From Burkholderiales bacterium (GTDB lineage: Bacteria; Pseudomonadota; Gammaproteobacteria; Burkholderiales; Burkholderiaceae_C): a DNA stretch of 45,207 nucleotides. Positions 20,699 to 25,503 of the stretch are shown here, piece after piece (within the stretch, counting starts at the first letter, position 1; each line of letters opens with the position of its first letter). The stretch lies in contig CANFXR010000013.1 of assembly GCA_947451035.1 (NCBI GenBank), positions 1-45,207 of the forward strand. The letters are read 5' to 3'. Made by a program: the position numbers and the translations under genes. The notes beneath the pieces are model-generated. The model was not told where the DNA came from. It saw only the letters and a list, made by a program, of their open reading frames with translations, and did not search any database.

Positions 20699-21625
20699 TC
20701 AGCGCGCCGGGCGATCGAGAAAATCGAGCAGCGGCACCAGCGAGCGAGCGGGCGCTTCTTCGTGCGGCAGGTGGCCCACGCCGGTGAAGGGCACCAGCCG
20801 CGCATGCGGCAGGCTCAGCAGGTAGTCGGCCGAGTTGGCAAACGGGATCATCACGTCTTGCTCGCCCCACAGCAGCAGCGTGCTCGCCTGGATGCTGCGC
20901 AGCAGCGGCCGCGGGTCGACCAGCCGGGTCTGCTGCAGCCGGGCGAGCAGCGCATCGCGGCTGCCAGGTGCCAGCATCAGCTCGTGGTAACGCGTGGTCA
21001 GCGCGTCGGTCAGCACCGCCGGGTCGGCGTAGGCGGGCTCCAGGCTCATGCGCAGCAGCGGCCGCGGCAGCACATGGCGCATCAGCTGCATCGACACCGG
21101 CACTTCGGCGGGCACGCCGTATTCGAAGCCGGGGCTGGCAAAGCCGTCGGGGGCGATGAGCACCAGCTTGTCGATGCGCTCGGGGTGCTGCGCCGCGAAC
21201 GTCCAGGCGATGCGCCCGCCGATCGAGTGGCCGACCAGCGTGGCGCGCTCGATGCCGCGCTGATCGAGCAGCGCCAGCAGCAGCCGCACGCTGCGCGCAT
21301 CGGTGTAGTCGCCCGTGGGGTCGGGCTCGCTCAGGCCGCAACCGGGCAGGTCGAGGCGGATCACCCGGTGATGCAGCGCGAGTTCGCGCGCCCACGGCTC
21401 CCAGGTGTGCAAGCTCGCGCCAAAGCCGTGGATCAGCACCACGGCGCTCGCGTCCTTCGGGCCGCTGTCGCGCACGTGCAGCCGCTCGCCGGCCACTTCG
21501 GTGAGGTCGCCGGGCGCATCGAGGTAGCGCGCTTGCAGGGTGGGGCGCCCGATGTCGGGGGTCCACAGACCATACGCGAGCAAGGTGAGCAACACGGCGC
21601 AAACAGCGATCAAGGTGGTTTTCAA
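20699..21625 (-). CDS. Alpha/beta hydrolase, membrane-anchored or exported
   Basis: 308 residues, TTG start with AAAGG upstream. An N-terminal hydrophobic segment (LIAVCAVLLTLLAYGLW) is followed by an alpha/beta hydrolase domain. The oxyanion region is LIHGFGASLHTW, the nucleophile Ser is in GHSIGG, the acid is probably Asp in WGEQDVMIP and the His is in GVGHLPHEE. The substrate is unknown; small-molecule esterase or dehalogenase-like folds are possible. It is the first gene of the minus-strand group, 73 bases before the DCC-Coq7 gene. Confidence 0.83.
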   Translation of the reverse strand: MKTTLIAVCAVLLTLLAYGLWTPDIGRPTLQARYLDAPGDLTEVAGERLHVRDSGPKDASAVVLIHGFGASLHTWEPWARELALHHRVIRLDLPGCGLSEPDPTGDYTDARSVRLLLALLDQRGIERATLVGHSIGGRIAWTFAAQHPERIDKLVLIAPDGFASPGFEYGVPAEVPVSMQLMRHVLPRPLLRMSLEPAYADPAVLTDALTTRYHELMLAPGSRDALLARLQQTRLVDPRPLLRSIQASTLLLWGEQDVMIPFANSADYLLSLPHARLVPFTGVGHLPHEEAPARSLVPLLDFLDRPAR

Positions 21626-21798
21626 GTGTCGACCTTTGACAATTCACGGCGGGGTGCGGCAGTGCCACAGCGTAGCCGACGGGTCACGCCATCCATGCAA
21701 CAGCCGGCTGAAAACCTCACAAATGGACACACCGAAGCGCGCCATCCCCGCTACGCTCGTGCGACCCGCTTGGCGGGTGTGAGGGGTGGCGGTTGACG

Positions 21799-22749
21799 AT
21801 GGACGAATACCTGCTGGGTGGAGCGCTGCTGGCATTGCTGGCGCTGCTGTGGTTCGTGCGCGGCCGGCAGCGCCGGCTGGCGCAACGCGATCAGCCGGCC
21901 GAGTCGACCGTGATAGCGCCGAGCCGGTTCAGATCCTGGCGCGCCTTGTCGCGCCAGGACAGCATGCAAGCTCCCGGGCTGCCGCTGGACGAAGATGAAA
22001 TCGCACAGCAAGCCGAGCGCGCGGCCGCGCAAGAGGCCGCGCGCATCGAAGGCGACCGCGAGGCCGCCGAGTGGGAGGCGCGTCTGGTCGCCGAGCAACT
22101 GGCCCACCGGGCTGAAGAACAGGCGCGGCTGGTGGCCGACAGCGAGTTCGACACGCTCTCGCCCTTGCAGCACGCGGCCAACGCGCAAGCCGCCGCCGAG
22201 CGCAGCGAGCGCGAGGCCCTCGATTCGCTGCAGCGGGCCTATGCCGATGCCGAGGCCGAACGCCGCACGGCAGACCGCCGCACCACCGATCGGCGTGCGG
22301 ACACGAGGGACTCCGTCGTCCCCCTGCCCACGCCCGAGCCGACTGCGCCGACCGCGCCGTCCCCGTCCCCGTCCGCCGGTGTCGTGTGGATTGCCGACGC
22401 CTCGAAGGTGGTGCGCGTCAAGACGAGCCGCCTGCTCGAGCAGCATGGCTGGCAGACCGCGCTGGCCACCGACGGGCTGGAGGTCCTCGAACAGATCTTG
22501 CGGGCCGCGCCGCACGCGCTGATCACCGGTGCCGAGCTGTCCGGGCTCGACGGCCTGGCGCTGACGCGTGAACTGCGCGCCGATCCGCGCACGGCGCAGC
22601 TGCCCATCGTGATGATCTCGGGCGATGACGTCTCGCTGCGCGAGGCGGCGCGCGATGCGGGCGTCAGCTTGCTGCTGGGCAAGCCCTACCCGGAAGACGA
22701 ACTGATCGACTATCTGGCGTCGACCCGCGAGACCGCCGCCGAGGCTTGA
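21799..22749 (+). CDS. Membrane-anchored pseudo-receiver protein
   Basis: 316 residues. An N-terminal membrane helix (LLGGALLALLALLWFV, about 5-20) leads to a long Glu/Ala/Arg-rich helical linker (about 65-160, probable coiled coil), a Pro/Thr/Ser-rich spacer and a C-terminal receiver fold (about 195-312). The receiver is degenerate: the phosphoacceptor Asp position is Gly in LITGAELSGLDG, and the acidic pair reads IADASK with only one Asp. The Lys in LLGKPY is kept. It is therefore probably a phosphorylation-independent interaction domain. It lies 72 bases before the caspase-like peptidase gene in the same direction. I prefer the ATG at 21799 over the TTG at 21793. Confidence 0.8.
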   Translation: MDEYLLGGALLALLALLWFVRGRQRRLAQRDQPAESTVIAPSRFRSWRALSRQDSMQAPGLPLDEDEIAQQAERAAAQEAARIEGDREAAEWEARLVAEQLAHRAEEQARLVADSEFDTLSPLQHAANAQAAAERSEREALDSLQRAYADAEAERRTADRRTTDRRADTRDSVVPLPTPEPTAPTAPSPSPSAGVVWIADASKVVRVKTSRLLEQHGWQTALATDGLEVLEQILRAAPHALITGAELSGLDGLALTRELRADPRTAQLPIVMISGDDVSLREAARDAGVSLLLGKPYPEDELIDYLASTRETAAEA

Positions 22750-22821
22750 ACGCGGCCGGCCGCGCCGCCAGAATCGATGCGCTCGCGGCGCCGCTCGCCG
22801 CTCCCACCGCAGGAGATTCCC

Positions 22822-24372
22822 GTGGACGACAAGCTCATCGTCAGCCACCGCGCCGCGCTCAAGGCCAAGTACGGCGCGGTCGGCCTCGCGCAGATTCAAA
22901 AGGCCGTGCGCGCCCTGATCGCCGCCGACCGGCAGCGCGGCCTGCGCAGCCGGCTGGTGTTTCTCGACGACGCGCGTGCGATGAAGCAACTCGGCGGCGC
23001 GCCGGCCACGCTGGCCACCAGCCCGGCGCAGGCCAAGGCGGCCATCGACGCGGTGTTTCGCGCCGTCGACCCGGCGTATCTGATGATCCTGGGCGCGCCC
23101 GACGTGGTGCCGCATCAGGATGTCGCCAACCCGATGCACGCGCCACCGGCCGACCCCGACCCCATCGCCTGGGGCGATCTGCCCTATGCCTGCGAGGCCG
23201 CCTATGGCCGCGAGGCGAGTGCGTTCAAGGGCCCCACGCGGGTGGTCGCTCGGCTGCCCGATCTGACCGGCGCGACCGAGCCGTCGCACCTGATCGGCCT
23301 GCTCGAAGCCGCCGCGGCGCACGTCACGCGCGACGTGGCCGAGTTCGGCGATTACTTCGGCTTGTCGACCGCCACCTGGCGCGCGTCGACGGCGCTGAGC
23401 TTGTTCAACGTGTTCGGCCAGTCCAGGGCGATGAGCGTGTCGCCGCCGGCGCGCGAGGCCATTGCCGCCGCACGGCTGGCGCCGCTGATGCACTTCATCA
23501 ACTGCCACGGCGGGCTGGCCGATCCGCGCTTTTATGGCGAGGACGCCGCCGGGCACCAGCCGGTGTCGATGTCGAGCCCCGGCATTGCCGGGCGCATCCG
23601 CGCTGGCACGGTGGCTGCTGCCGAATGCTGCTACGGCGGCGAGCTGTACGACTCGGTCACGCTGGGCTTGCCGCTGCCCATCGGTCAGCACTACCTGGCG
23701 CAAGGCGCGTGCGGTTTCTTTGGCAGCTCGACGATCGCCTACGGGCCGCTCGAGGGCAACGGTTCGGCCGATCTGCTGACGCAGTACTTCTTGCTGGCGG
23801 TGCTCGAAGGCGCGTCGATCGGGCGCGCCACGCTGATGGCGCGCCAGCGCTTCGTGCAGCAAACCAGCGAGCTCGATCCGACCGACCTGAAGACCCTGGC
23901 GCAGTTCAGCCTGCTCGGTGACCCGTCGCTGCACCCGGCGCGCGTGCCCGGCGCCACCGGCGTGCCCCAGGGTCTGGCGCCGCTCGACGCGCAGCGCTTG
24001 CAACGGCGCGAGCGGCGTGTCGCGCTGCGCTCGGCGGGCGAGTTTCTGGATGCGACCAAGCCGGCCACTGCGCGCCCGCAACCCGCGGCGAAGGCCTCGG
24101 CGGCGGTGCGCCGCGCGCTGGCCCACATCGCCGAGCGCGCCGGGTTGGCGGCCGATCAGGTGTTCGTGGCGTACGCGGTCGAGTCGCCTGCCGGGGCGGC
24201 CGTTCCAGCCGCGCGCGGCAAGGCGACGCCGGCGCCCACGCGCTATCACCTGGCCGTCGCGACACCGCCTGCCGCCACGCGGCCTTCGGGCGCCGCGCCC
24301 TCGGCGGTGGCGGCGCTGGCGCGCGAGGTCGATGGCCGCATCGTCGGCTACCGGGTCTATGTGCAGCGCTGA
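22822..24372 (+). CDS. Caspase-like cysteine peptidase, C25/gingipain type
   Basis: 516 residues with a clan CD (caspase/gingipain) fold. The likely catalytic dyad is His229 in INCHGG and Cys270 (or 269) in AAECCYGG. The stretch AYLMILGAPDVVPHQD, then LPYACE and ARLPDLTG, matches the first sheet of C25-type domains. GACGFFGSSTIAYGP and FSLLGDPSLHP complete the domain. There is no signal peptide, so unlike gingipains it is probably cytoplasmic. The last 130 residues are an Ala/Pro-rich linker and a small unrecognised domain. GTG start with AGGAG six bases upstream. The next gene starts directly after its stop. Confidence 0.75.
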   Translation: MDDKLIVSHRAALKAKYGAVGLAQIQKAVRALIAADRQRGLRSRLVFLDDARAMKQLGGAPATLATSPAQAKAAIDAVFRAVDPAYLMILGAPDVVPHQDVANPMHAPPADPDPIAWGDLPYACEAAYGREASAFKGPTRVVARLPDLTGATEPSHLIGLLEAAAAHVTRDVAEFGDYFGLSTATWRASTALSLFNVFGQSRAMSVSPPAREAIAAARLAPLMHFINCHGGLADPRFYGEDAAGHQPVSMSSPGIAGRIRAGTVAAAECCYGGELYDSVTLGLPLPIGQHYLAQGACGFFGSSTIAYGPLEGNGSADLLTQYFLLAVLEGASIGRATLMARQRFVQQTSELDPTDLKTLAQFSLLGDPSLHPARVPGATGVPQGLAPLDAQRLQRRERRVALRSAGEFLDATKPATARPQPAAKASAAVRRALAHIAERAGLAADQVFVAYAVESPAGAAVPAARGKATPAPTRYHLAVATPPAATRPSGAAPSAVAALAREVDGRIVGYRVYVQR

Positions 24373-24633
24373 ATGACGATCGCGCCGCAGCGTGTCGAGA
24401 GGCTGCGCGGCAGGGTGCGGCGCGGGCCGCTGGGTGCGGGGAGCAAGAGCGAGCGCGAGGCGGTCTGGCTCGACACCGCGCAGGGCCGCTACGTGCTGCG
24501 CCGCCAGGACGGCCCGACCTTCGGCGACAGCGCGCTCGAGGCGTGGGTGGGTCGCGAGGTGGCGTGCAGCGGCTTCATCGCCGACTACGTGCTGCTGGCC
24601 GAGCGCATCGAGGCGATCGACGGCGCGATCTGA
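24373..24633 (+). CDS. Small protein of unknown function, partner of the caspase-like peptidase
   Basis: 86 residues, basic in its first quarter (RVERLRGRVRRGPLG) and then apparently all-beta (EREAVWLDTAQGRYVLRRQ, with VACSGFIADYVLLAERIE at the end). The pattern suggests a small OB-fold or SH3-like barrel, but this is inference from residue pattern only. It starts on the base after the peptidase stop (TGA-ATG), so it is almost surely translated from the same message. It could be a substrate, inhibitor or nucleic-acid-binding adaptor of the peptidase. I do not recognise a named family. Confidence 0.65.
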   Translation: MTIAPQRVERLRGRVRRGPLGAGSKSEREAVWLDTAQGRYVLRRQDGPTFGDSALEAWVGREVACSGFIADYVLLAERIEAIDGAI

Positions 24634-24666
24634 GTCTGGCTGTGGTGGTGCGTCAGCCGCCCGGGT

Positions 24667-24683
24667 GGCTCACCGGTTGAGCC
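24667..24683. terminator. Small hairpin at the end of convergent operons
   Basis: GGCTCA and TGAGCC pair with a 5-base loop at the phnE2 stop codon, opposite the end of the 86-aa gene. Stem of only 6 bp and no T-tract, so weak. Confidence 0.28.
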
Positions 24684-25503
24684 AGCGCCGCGTGGCGAAC
24701 GACAGCGCATCGACCAGCGCCACCAGCGCCATCATGGCGCCCAGCACGGTGCAGCTCTCGTGCATCTGGAACAAGCCCAGGTGGTAGTACAGCATCTGCC
24801 CCAGCCCGCCGGCACCCACCACGCCCAGCACGGCGGCCGCGCGGATGTTGTTCTCCCAGCGGTACAGCGTGTAGGCGATGACCTGCGGCCAGATCTGCGG
24901 CAGCGTGGCAAACAGGAACACGCGCAGCGCGCCCACACCGCGCACGCGCAGCGCGAAGGCGGGCTCGGGCGCGGCGTTCTCGAGGCTCTCGGCGAACAGC
25001 CGCCCGAGCACGCCGGTGGTGTGCAGCGCCAGCGCCAGCGTGCCGGCAAACGGCCCCAGCCCGGCGGCGATCAGCAGCAGCGCGGCCCACACCAGCTCGG
25101 GCACCGAGCGCAGCCCATTGAGCACGCCGCGCGTGGCCGCGCGCAGCACCCCGGTGGCCAGCGCGGAGCCGGCGCCCTCATGGCGGCGCGCGCTCGCCGG
25201 CAGCGCCAGCGCCAGGCCGCCCACGGCCGCGAGCAAGGTGCCCAGCAGCGACATGGCCAGCGTTTCCAGCGTGCCGTCGAGCGTGCGCTGCAGGAACGCG
25301 GCCGAGGTCTCGGGTGGAAAGAAGCCGGCCGCGAACTTTCCCATCTTGCCCAGCGCATCGGGCGACAGGAAATCGCCCCAGCGCAGCTCCAGCGTGGCAA
25401 AGCTCAGCACCACCAGCGTGGCGATGACCAGGCCGACCCAGCGCGCGGCGTGGCGCGCCGGCGGCTGCCTCAGGTGCGGCGCGAGTGGCACGGGCGCGCT
25501 CAT
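24670..25503 (-). CDS. phnE: ABC transporter permease, PhnE family (second)
   Basis: 277 residues with a TM segment near the N-terminus (VGLVIATLVVLSFATLEL) and a binding-protein-dependent permease domain carrying five more. The coupling loop reads LRVRGVGALRVFLFATLPQ, and VVGAGGLGQML is the family's C-terminal signature. It is the last of four genes of a phosphonate-type importer and should pair with the first PhnE to make a heterodimeric channel. Its ATG overlaps the first permease's stop (ATGA). The proximity of the conserved RWENNIRAAAV stretch to the RWECAIRASVV of its partner shows they are paralogues. Confidence 0.87.
   Translation of the reverse strand: MSAPVPLAPHLRQPPARHAARWVGLVIATLVVLSFATLELRWGDFLSPDALGKMGKFAAGFFPPETSAAFLQRTLDGTLETLAMSLLGTLLAAVGGLALALPASARRHEGAGSALATGVLRAATRGVLNGLRSVPELVWAALLLIAAGLGPFAGTLALALHTTGVLGRLFAESLENAAPEPAFALRVRGVGALRVFLFATLPQIWPQVIAYTLYRWENNIRAAAVLGVVGAGGLGQMLYYHLGLFQMHESCTVLGAMMALVALVDALSFATRRWLNR

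What the first reader, a model, noticed from the sequence alone, without database searches (positions are those of the whole stretch)
21799..24633. Candidate cassette: membrane pseudo-receiver, caspase-like peptidase, small beta protein
Three genes in one direction combine a membrane-anchored, phosphorylation-dead receiver, a C25/gingipain-like peptidase without signal peptide, and an 86-residue protein starting on the base after the peptidase stop. Bacterial caspase-like peptidases with small partners are frequent in conflict and regulated-proteolysis systems. I do not know this arrangement as a described system.
Basis: partly seen in the sequence, partly recalled or inferred. Interest (0 to 1): 0.62.

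Follow-up and report, generated by a model that had tools for sequence, protein, structure and literature searches.

The report
Caspase-like protease with bundled partner protein
Two neighbouring genes, a protease shaped like the gum-disease enzyme gingipain and a tiny barrel-shaped protein that probably holds it in check, are found together in very different microbes; the third gene in the finding is a bystander.

Summary
The three ORFs are real, but the cassette is two genes. The 516-aa peptidase (PEP, 22822-24372) models with a gingipain fold (Z 30.6 to RgpB); His229 and Cys270 stand in 41 of 41 loci. The 86-aa protein (P86, 24373-24633) follows PEP in those 41 loci: five bacterial phyla, one archaeal contig, and plasmids. 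One divergent relative lacks P86. In 72,556 plasmid records, PEP and P86 queries hit the same 10. The receiver sits beside PEP in only 6 of 25 scanned loci; a same-genus genome keeps it and the flanks but lacks just PEP-P86. Three orthologs keep the phospho-Asp.

P86 models as an OB-like barrel; its top four second-look matches are Tannerella potempins, peptidase inhibitors (Z 6.9-7.4, weak). Its longest conserved run is a G-S-K-S-E-R loop.

Best reading: a patchily distributed protease-inhibitor pair in which P86 restrains a cytoplasmic Arg/Lys-type caspase-fold protease. Pairing is shown and the fold predicted; inhibition, specificity and role are inferred. No Pfam, NCBIfam, PADLOC or PHROGs model credibly covers P86.

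The parts
22822..24372 (+). PEP: C25-like (gingipain-fold) cysteine peptidase, 516 aa, GTG start; catalytic part about residues 1-394 (22822-24003), variable C-terminal part about 395-516
   Evidence: Pfam C25 E 8.4e-5, just under cut-off; model; RgpB Z 30.6, rmsd 3.0, 307 aligned; 41 loci
23506..23508 (+). His229 codon (NCHG motif), presumed catalytic
   Evidence: 41 of 41 loci; role inferred from clan CD layout (recalled)
23623..23631 (+). Glu268-Cys269-Cys270 codons; Cys270 presumed nucleophile, Glu268 candidate S1 acid
   Evidence: E268 40 of 41, C269 and C270 41 of 41; relative L061 has E-A-C by eye, keeping only Cys270
24373..24633 (+). P86: 86-aa OB-like partner, candidate inhibitor, ATG directly after the PEP stop
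   Evidence: 41 of 41 loci; model pLDDT 87.2, b-b-b-a-b-b; potempins rank 1-4, Z 6.9-7.4
24439..24456 (+). codons of the G-S-K-S-E-R loop (P86 residues 23-28), candidate reactive loop between strands 1 and 2
   Evidence: K25 40 of 41, S26 41 of 41; residues 23-25 have pLDDT under 50 in the read-through model
22811..22815 (+). AGGAG ribosome-binding-site-like sequence, 6 bases between it and the PEP GTG
   Evidence: sequence
21799..22749 (+). REC: membrane-anchored degenerate receiver; flanking gene, NOT part of the cassette
   Evidence: homologue present without PEP-P86 in G494

Best explanation
PEP and P86 form a two-gene protease-inhibitor module, tightly adjacent and probably translationally coupled, that is gained or lost as a unit. 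PEP is a presumed cytoplasmic cysteine peptidase with the gingipain double-caspase fold and, by inference, Arg/Lys specificity. P86 is a small OB-like protein made from the same message. Shown: the pairing, adjacency, conserved catalytic residues and loop, and a clean two-gene presence/absence site. Predicted by models: both folds. Inferred: location in the cytoplasm, that P86 binds PEP, that it inhibits it, the cleavage specificity, and the trigger and target in the cell.
For: Pairing: in 41 of 41 loci P86 starts -43 to +84 bases from the end of the PEP stop codon, start codons picked by script. 20 of 20 PEP-positive genomes or plasmids tested carry P86. Two P86 queries hit the same 10 of 72,556 plasmid records as PEP, some of them near-copies of each other. 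A P86-first scan of 200 genomes found the window's own and one other, G899, also beside PEP. Unit: G494 lacks just the PEP-P86 segment. Fold: PEP to RgpB Z 30.6 and Kgp first by Foldseek, E 1.6e-12; P86 OB-like, potempins A and D at ranks 1-4 of the second look. Loop: G-S/T-K-S-E/D/Q-R/H is the longest conserved run of P86; the one locus where Lys25 is lost (L039) is also the only one where Glu268 is lost. P86 distances correlate with the PEP catalytic domain (r 0.64; partial r 0.52, 0 of 2000 permutations) more than with its C-terminal part (r 0.47; partial r -0.18) over 29 pairs. Small inhibitors coded beside bacterial cysteine proteases, thought to guard the cytoplasm, are known (PMC3462683, passages).
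Against: No binding or inhibition has been measured. The potempin match is weak (Z under 8, where the tool warns of mere common arrangement; potempin D is within 1 of the next row) and is not in Foldseek's own top 50, led by TiaS-type OB domains at E 0.065. No potempin was found by sequence profile. The read-through model gave no coordinates or error map, so docking at the active site is untested, and the loop is low-confidence there. The Lys25/Glu268 co-change is one event on a very long branch (L039). The C-terminal part aligns poorly, which could cause the partial-correlation result. One divergent PEP relative, G737, does without P86. A conserved Lys-Ser loop fits a substrate as well as an inhibitor.
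Confidence: 0.5

Rival explanations
1. P86 is the substrate: PEP cuts it at K25-S26 on a signal and the cleaved OB-like protein acts downstream, as in protease-effector pairs.
For: The conserved, low-confidence loop holds Lys-Ser and Arg/His, what an Arg/Lys-specific C25 peptidase would cut; constant pairing.
Against: P86 is one compact domain of about 75 residues; a cut in the first loop gives no obvious free effector. Second-look fold matches favour inhibitors (weak).
Confidence: 0.18
2. P86 is an activating sensor or adaptor: its OB-like barrel binds a nucleic acid or nucleotide and switches PEP on, like SAVED-CHAT or Craspase.
For: OB folds often bind nucleic acids (TiaS, SSB, PriB and RPA are among the matches); CHAT proteases are among the distant structural relatives of PEP; R43 and R44 are well conserved (37 and 38 of 41); a TIR protein lies next to the pair in L012.
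Against: P86 cores are about neutral (net charge -3 to +4, median 0, 41 sequences); no PADLOC match for PEP or P86; a TIR protein was seen in one locus only, though only selected neighbours were scanned.
Confidence: 0.15
3. One reading: receiver, peptidase and 86-aa protein form a three-part signalling and proteolysis cassette.
For: In six close relatives and the window the receiver lies just upstream on the same strand, so the genes may be co-transcribed there.
Against: The receiver was not found in the other 19 of 25 scan loci; a homologue stands without PEP in G494 with the same flanks; the site is degenerate in the window's clade.
Confidence: 0.05
4. P86 is a folding or stability partner, such as a trans-acting propeptide, rather than a regulator.
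For: The best fold match is the RgpB pro-mature complex entry (4ief), gingipains are made with a propeptide (recalled), PEP shows none before its catalytic part, and P86 is coded next to it.
Against: The conservation peak is a flexible loop and not a folding core; nothing here tests it.
Confidence: 0.12

Closest known systems
Gingipains RgpB and Kgp (peptidase family C25, clan CD)
   Same: Same double caspase-like fold over 307-326 aligned residues (Z 27.6-30.6) and a His...Cys pair
   Different: 12-15% identity; no export signal seen (crude hydropathy); the C-terminal part of about 120 residues was not covered by the fold matches; presumed cytoplasmic; paired with P86
Potempins of Tannerella forsythia with KLIKK peptidases
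   Same: Small OB-fold inhibitor coded beside its peptidase; best second-look fold match of P86; pairing described in PMC7296668 (passages, there as data to be published)
   Different: Potempins are lipoproteins whose genes precede the protease gene, against metallo- and serine proteases (recalled); P86 shows no lipoprotein signal, follows the gene, and would face a clan CD cysteine peptidase; no sequence match
Staphopain-staphostatin, SpeB-Spi and Bacteroides C10 pairs
   Same: Cysteine protease with a small inhibitor in a contiguous, co-transcribed gene; staphostatin binds substrate-like through a short segment (PMC3462683, PMC7863939, passages)
   Different: Papain-fold-related secreted proteases; beta-barrel inhibitors of other folds; the PEP pair has an unrelated protease fold and no export signal seen
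Separase-securin and legumain-cystatin
   Same: Clan CD proteases held by a protein partner in substrate-like fashion near S1 (PMC7863939 passages); separase is the next fold match (Z 16.1)
   Different: Eukaryotic; partners are a largely unstructured chain or a cystatin, not a 75-residue OB-like barrel

Membership tests
Peptidase family C25 / clan CD | double caspase-like alpha/beta fold of gingipains | tested here: met
   Model residues 2-393 to RgpB Z 30.6, rmsd 3.0, 307 aligned; next group (separase) Z 16.1
Peptidase family C25 / clan CD | catalytic His and Cys at strand ends (HG ... C) | tested here: met
   H229 and C270 in 41 of 41 loci; residue-level superposition not available
Peptidase family C25 / clan CD | Pfam PF01364 above curated cut-off | tested here: not met
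   22.4 bits against 23 for the window protein, borderline; so filed as C25-like, not as a strict member by this criterion
Peptidase family C25 / clan CD | Arg- or Lys-specific cleavage | not testable with these tools
   needs an enzyme assay; Glu268 two residues before Cys270 is suggestive only
Type IX secretion sortase PorU | NCBIfam PorU2 model above its cut-off | tested here: not met
   NF052324 13 bits against 450; PorU is a distant fold match (6za2, Z 13.7)
Potempin | OB fold | tested here: met
   b-b-b-a-b-b model; potempins A and D lead the 997 chains of the second look, Z 6.9-7.4; weak, see evidence against
Potempin | sequence homology to known potempins | tested here: inconclusive
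   P86 profile lists no potempin chain in the PDB at E up to 5; the 17-21% identity is from structural alignment only
Potempin | lipoprotein signal | tested here: not met
   the window's P86 begins MTIAPQRVERLRG and has its only Cys at residue 65 (translation). So P86 is not filed as a potempin
Potempin | inhibits the neighbouring peptidase | not testable with these tools
   bench assay needed
Type II-like toxin-antitoxin | adjacent small partner, present or absent as a unit, patchy | tested here: met
   present in 6 of 200 family genomes, window's included
Type II-like toxin-antitoxin | peptidase toxic alone, rescued by partner | not testable with these tools
   bench assay needed
   receiver in 6 of 25 loci, and present without PEP in G494
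Known anti-phage defence systems | match to a PADLOC model | tested here: not met
   0 families for PEP and P86 at E up to 1

The most novel reading that the evidence does not exclude
A self-contained, horizontally moving protease toxin-antitoxin or defence module found in bacteria and possibly archaea: a cytoplasmic gingipain-fold protease that kills or arrests the cell once a labile OB-fold inhibitor is removed, for example by phage shut-off. P86 would be the first OB-fold inhibitor of a clan CD (caspase-type) peptidase, acting through a Lys-Ser reactive loop.
Probability: 0.2. Interest if true: 0.8.

Novelty: new variant of a known kind. Interest (0 to 1): 0.56.

Why it matters
Gingipains are studied as secreted virulence proteases (recalled). 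This is a separate, presumed cytoplasmic branch found in several phyla with one constant partner. If P86 inhibits it, it adds an OB-fold inhibitor for the caspase-type clan, a small scaffold with one obvious reactive loop to study, and a compact protease-plus-off-switch that can be tested for cell arrest or phage resistance in a laboratory strain.

Tried and rejected
Three-gene cassette: rejected on receiver distribution and the empty site. C-terminal Arg of PEP as a product-like tail in the active site: dropped, because L036/L037 end in ARGL/ARGG and L039 in HSS. Pfam EspG hit of P86 (E 0.0018, 18.4 bits against a cut-off of 27): judged spurious. Nucleic-acid-binding P86: kept as a rival, no charge support. 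Fixed third partner: the neighbours looked at differ (trypsin-like, SH3, GDSL, amidohydrolase, ATP-grasp, LPMO, PhoX, DsbB, astacin), with GDSL hydrolases recurring in alphaproteobacteria (L009, L092, and fused to a caspase in L032); only 20 chosen neighbour proteins were run against Pfam and 8 against PADLOC, so enrichment of defence genes was not measured. Phage origin: no relatives found for PEP in phages or viral contigs or for P86 in phages; P86 was not scanned in viral contigs (one search failed). Mobile-element ends: no convincing repeats within 22700-24700 and no promoter-like site within 21600-24900. PEP relative without P86: G737/L061 (E 1.1e-69, matches only the catalytic part, PPC-like N-terminus by eye, no P86); it is left out of the '41 of 41' counts, so all peptidase relatives give 41 of 42. 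L012 has a frameshifted PEP and was left out of the PEP alignments and the tree; the P86 of L003 is cut by the contig end; 7 of the 10 plasmid records were fetched. In L027 the script found no start codon upstream of the P86 core; its ATG lies 58 bases past the PEP stop. The correlation test used 29 of the 41 pairs. Papers: I saw nothing on this pair in the listed rows of the searches; 0 papers hold 'C25 family cysteine peptidase'. The terms C25 and gingipain do not occur in three papers checked by term: PMC8195603, PMC7159879, PMC3501461. The main potempin paper is not held, so potempin facts beyond searches are recalled.
Full report
WHAT IS THERE. The window holds three + strand ORFs at the stated place: a receiver (REC, 21799-22749), a peptidase (PEP, GTG 22822 to 24372, with AGGAG six bases before the start) and an 86-aa ORF (P86, 24373-24633). 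Pfam sees Response_reg in REC (2.4e-14), a C25 match just under the curated cut-off in PEP (8.4e-5, 22.4 against 23 bits) and only a sub-threshold, judged spurious, hit in P86. NCBIfam gives nothing near a cut-off for PEP and nothing for P86; PADLOC gives nothing. PHROGs gives nothing for PEP or three P86 sequences.

THE UNIT IS TWO GENES. A scan of one genome per species with PEP gave 25 loci: Burkholderiales, Nitrospira, Cellvibrio, an alphaproteobacterium, a Nitrososphaerales contig, Pyrinomonadaceae, Chlorobiaceae, Kuenenia and many Roseateles/Mitsuaria. Plasmids add 10 records, rhizobia and a Novosphingobium; 7 of these 10 were fetched. Genome searches add eight more loci (L035-L039, L065, L088, L092) and one partial relative. 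In 41 of 41 loci, window included, P86 starts between 43 bases before and 84 bases after the end of the PEP stop codon, starts being picked by script. Where PEP was present, 20 of 20 genomes or plasmids tested had P86, one copy each except a second partial copy on one Bradyrhizobium plasmid. Searching the other way round: a P86 profile over 200 genomes of the order found 2, the window's own and G899, which also has PEP beside it. Two different P86 queries over 72,556 plasmid records found 10 records each, the same 10 as PEP; a few of the 10 are near-copies. One distant relative, G737, lacks P86 and also the PEP C-terminal part.

THE RECEIVER IS A NEIGHBOUR. REC is next to PEP in 6 of the 25 scan loci, all with PEP at least 70% identical. 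A full-length REC homologue (68% identity to that of L006) occurs in G494, a same-genus genome in which no PEP was found. Its flanks are the same: on one side COQ7-like and hydrolase genes, on the other transporter genes that I take for a phosphonate-type set (names by eye; homology). Aligned to L006, G494 matches up to the REC stop and again from nine bases past the P86 stop. So the missing or inserted segment is PEP-P86 and nothing else; which of the two happened is not shown. The 'dead' receiver is probably recent: window and L002-L004 have lost the phospho-Asp, L005, L006 and L011 keep it. Receiver-domain matches at E 1e-25 or better are common (96 of 120 family genomes); most cover only the receiver part.

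DISTRIBUTION. The pair is patchy: PEP in 6 of 200 same-family genomes, 1 of 398 over the phylum with a single-sequence query, the one being the window's genome, and 2 of 149, 1 of 199, 2 of 148, 2 of 289 and 1 of 247 in samples around other carriers, each count including the carrier itself and the 2 of 149 including the P86-less relative. The PEP tree joins Nitrospira, the archaeal contig, Cellvibrio and alphaproteobacteria with the window's clade (100/96), while other members of the window's own family fall in a distant clade. That suggests horizontal transfer; the tool notes that such splits are no proof, and several carriers are metagenome bins, so single odd placements could be binning errors. 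No phage or viral relative was found (PEP; P86: phages only).

STRUCTURE. A read-through chain PEP-Trp-P86 was modelled (pLDDT 89.4, pTM 0.85). Residues 2-393 match RgpB with Z 30.6 (rmsd 3.0, 307 aligned), Kgp 27.9, then separase 16.1. H229, C269 and C270 are present in 41 of 41 loci; the relative L061 has E-A-C there by eye, pointing to Cys270 as the nucleophile. Glu268, two before Cys270, stands where other clan CD enzymes carry S1-pocket residues (recalled), hence the guess of Arg/Lys specificity. P86 alone models as a five-strand OB-like barrel (pLDDT 87.2). In the second look (997 chains), potempin A (three entries, Z 7.1-7.4) and potempin D (6.9) rank first; the next is 6.0, then mostly single-strand and other OB-fold DNA-binding proteins. 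Foldseek itself ranked other OB domains first, best E 0.065, with no potempin in its top 50. The tool warns that Z under 8 can be mere arrangement, so this is a lead.

THE LOOP. The longest conserved run of P86 is residues 23-28: G 40 of 41, S/T 41, K 40, S 41, E/D/Q 41, R/H 41; the L-R-R at 42-44 is nearly as well kept (39, 37, 38). The loop lies between strands 1 and 2, and residues 23-25 fall under pLDDT 50 in the read-through model. A near-invariant, flexible loop with Lys-Ser next to an enzyme presumed to cut after Arg/Lys suggests a reactive loop. The only locus without Lys25, L039, is also the only one without Glu268; this is one event on a long branch. Over 29 pairs, P86 distances correlate with the catalytic domain (r 0.64) and the C-terminal part (r 0.47), each beyond 2000 permutations; the partial correlation is 0.52 for the catalytic domain (0 of 2000) and -0.18 for the C-terminal part. 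The C-terminal part aligns poorly, which may bias this.

MECHANISM. Most likely P86 is a co-made inhibitor that keeps an otherwise harmful cytoplasmic protease silent. Precedents are pairs such as staphopain-staphostatin and Bacteroides C10 proteases with staphostatin-like proteins (PMC3462683, passages) and KLIKK-potempin pairs (PMC7296668, passages). A review of protein inhibitors of cysteine proteases, searched by term only, has no occurrence of 'OB-fold' (PMC7863939). What releases PEP and what it cuts are unknown; the neighbours looked at differ from locus to locus. Two plasmid loci have annotated toxin-antitoxin genes a few genes away (AbiE-type in L029, RES/MbcA-type in L032) and one locus a TIR protein (L012), which fits but does not show a conflict setting. 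Rivals are P86 as substrate, as activator or sensor, or as folding partner.

VERDICT. It is a new variant of a known kind, the bacterial protease with an adjacent small inhibitor, in a protease clan and inhibitor fold that I did not see paired in the searches made here.

Noticed in passing
L029 (NZ_CP088289.1), about 1.26 kb after the PEP stop: A second, partial P86-like ORF (E 2.2e-6) downstream of the first; only one PEP place was found in that plasmid.
   Followed up: partly
L061/L063 (G737), PEP-like ORF 646-2397: A relative of the PEP catalytic part behind a repeated N-terminal part that looks PPC-like by eye, no P86, but followed at once by a different small ORF of about 95 aa, perhaps an unrelated partner in the same place.
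   Followed up: no
L032 2599-4509 and L033 13755-15665: A protein with a GDSL-like part (below Pfam cut-off) and a C14 caspase domain in one chain near the PEP-P86 pair on rhizobial plasmids (Pfam run on L032 only).
   Followed up: no
L012 6974-11265: A Nitrospira locus with a RimK-type ATP-grasp gene before a frameshifted PEP, then P86 and a protein with three TIR stretches.
   Followed up: partly
L027, L028, L029, L031: PEP-P86 lies near a recurring set of ferritin-like, weakly LodA-like, radical SAM and, in part, halogenase-annotated genes (annotation; clusters; Pfam on L028).
   Followed up: no
window 21799-22749 against L005, L006, L011: The receiver lost its phospho-Asp in the window's clade (window, L002-L004) while L005, L006 and L011 keep it, a pseudo-receiver in the making.
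   Followed up: yes
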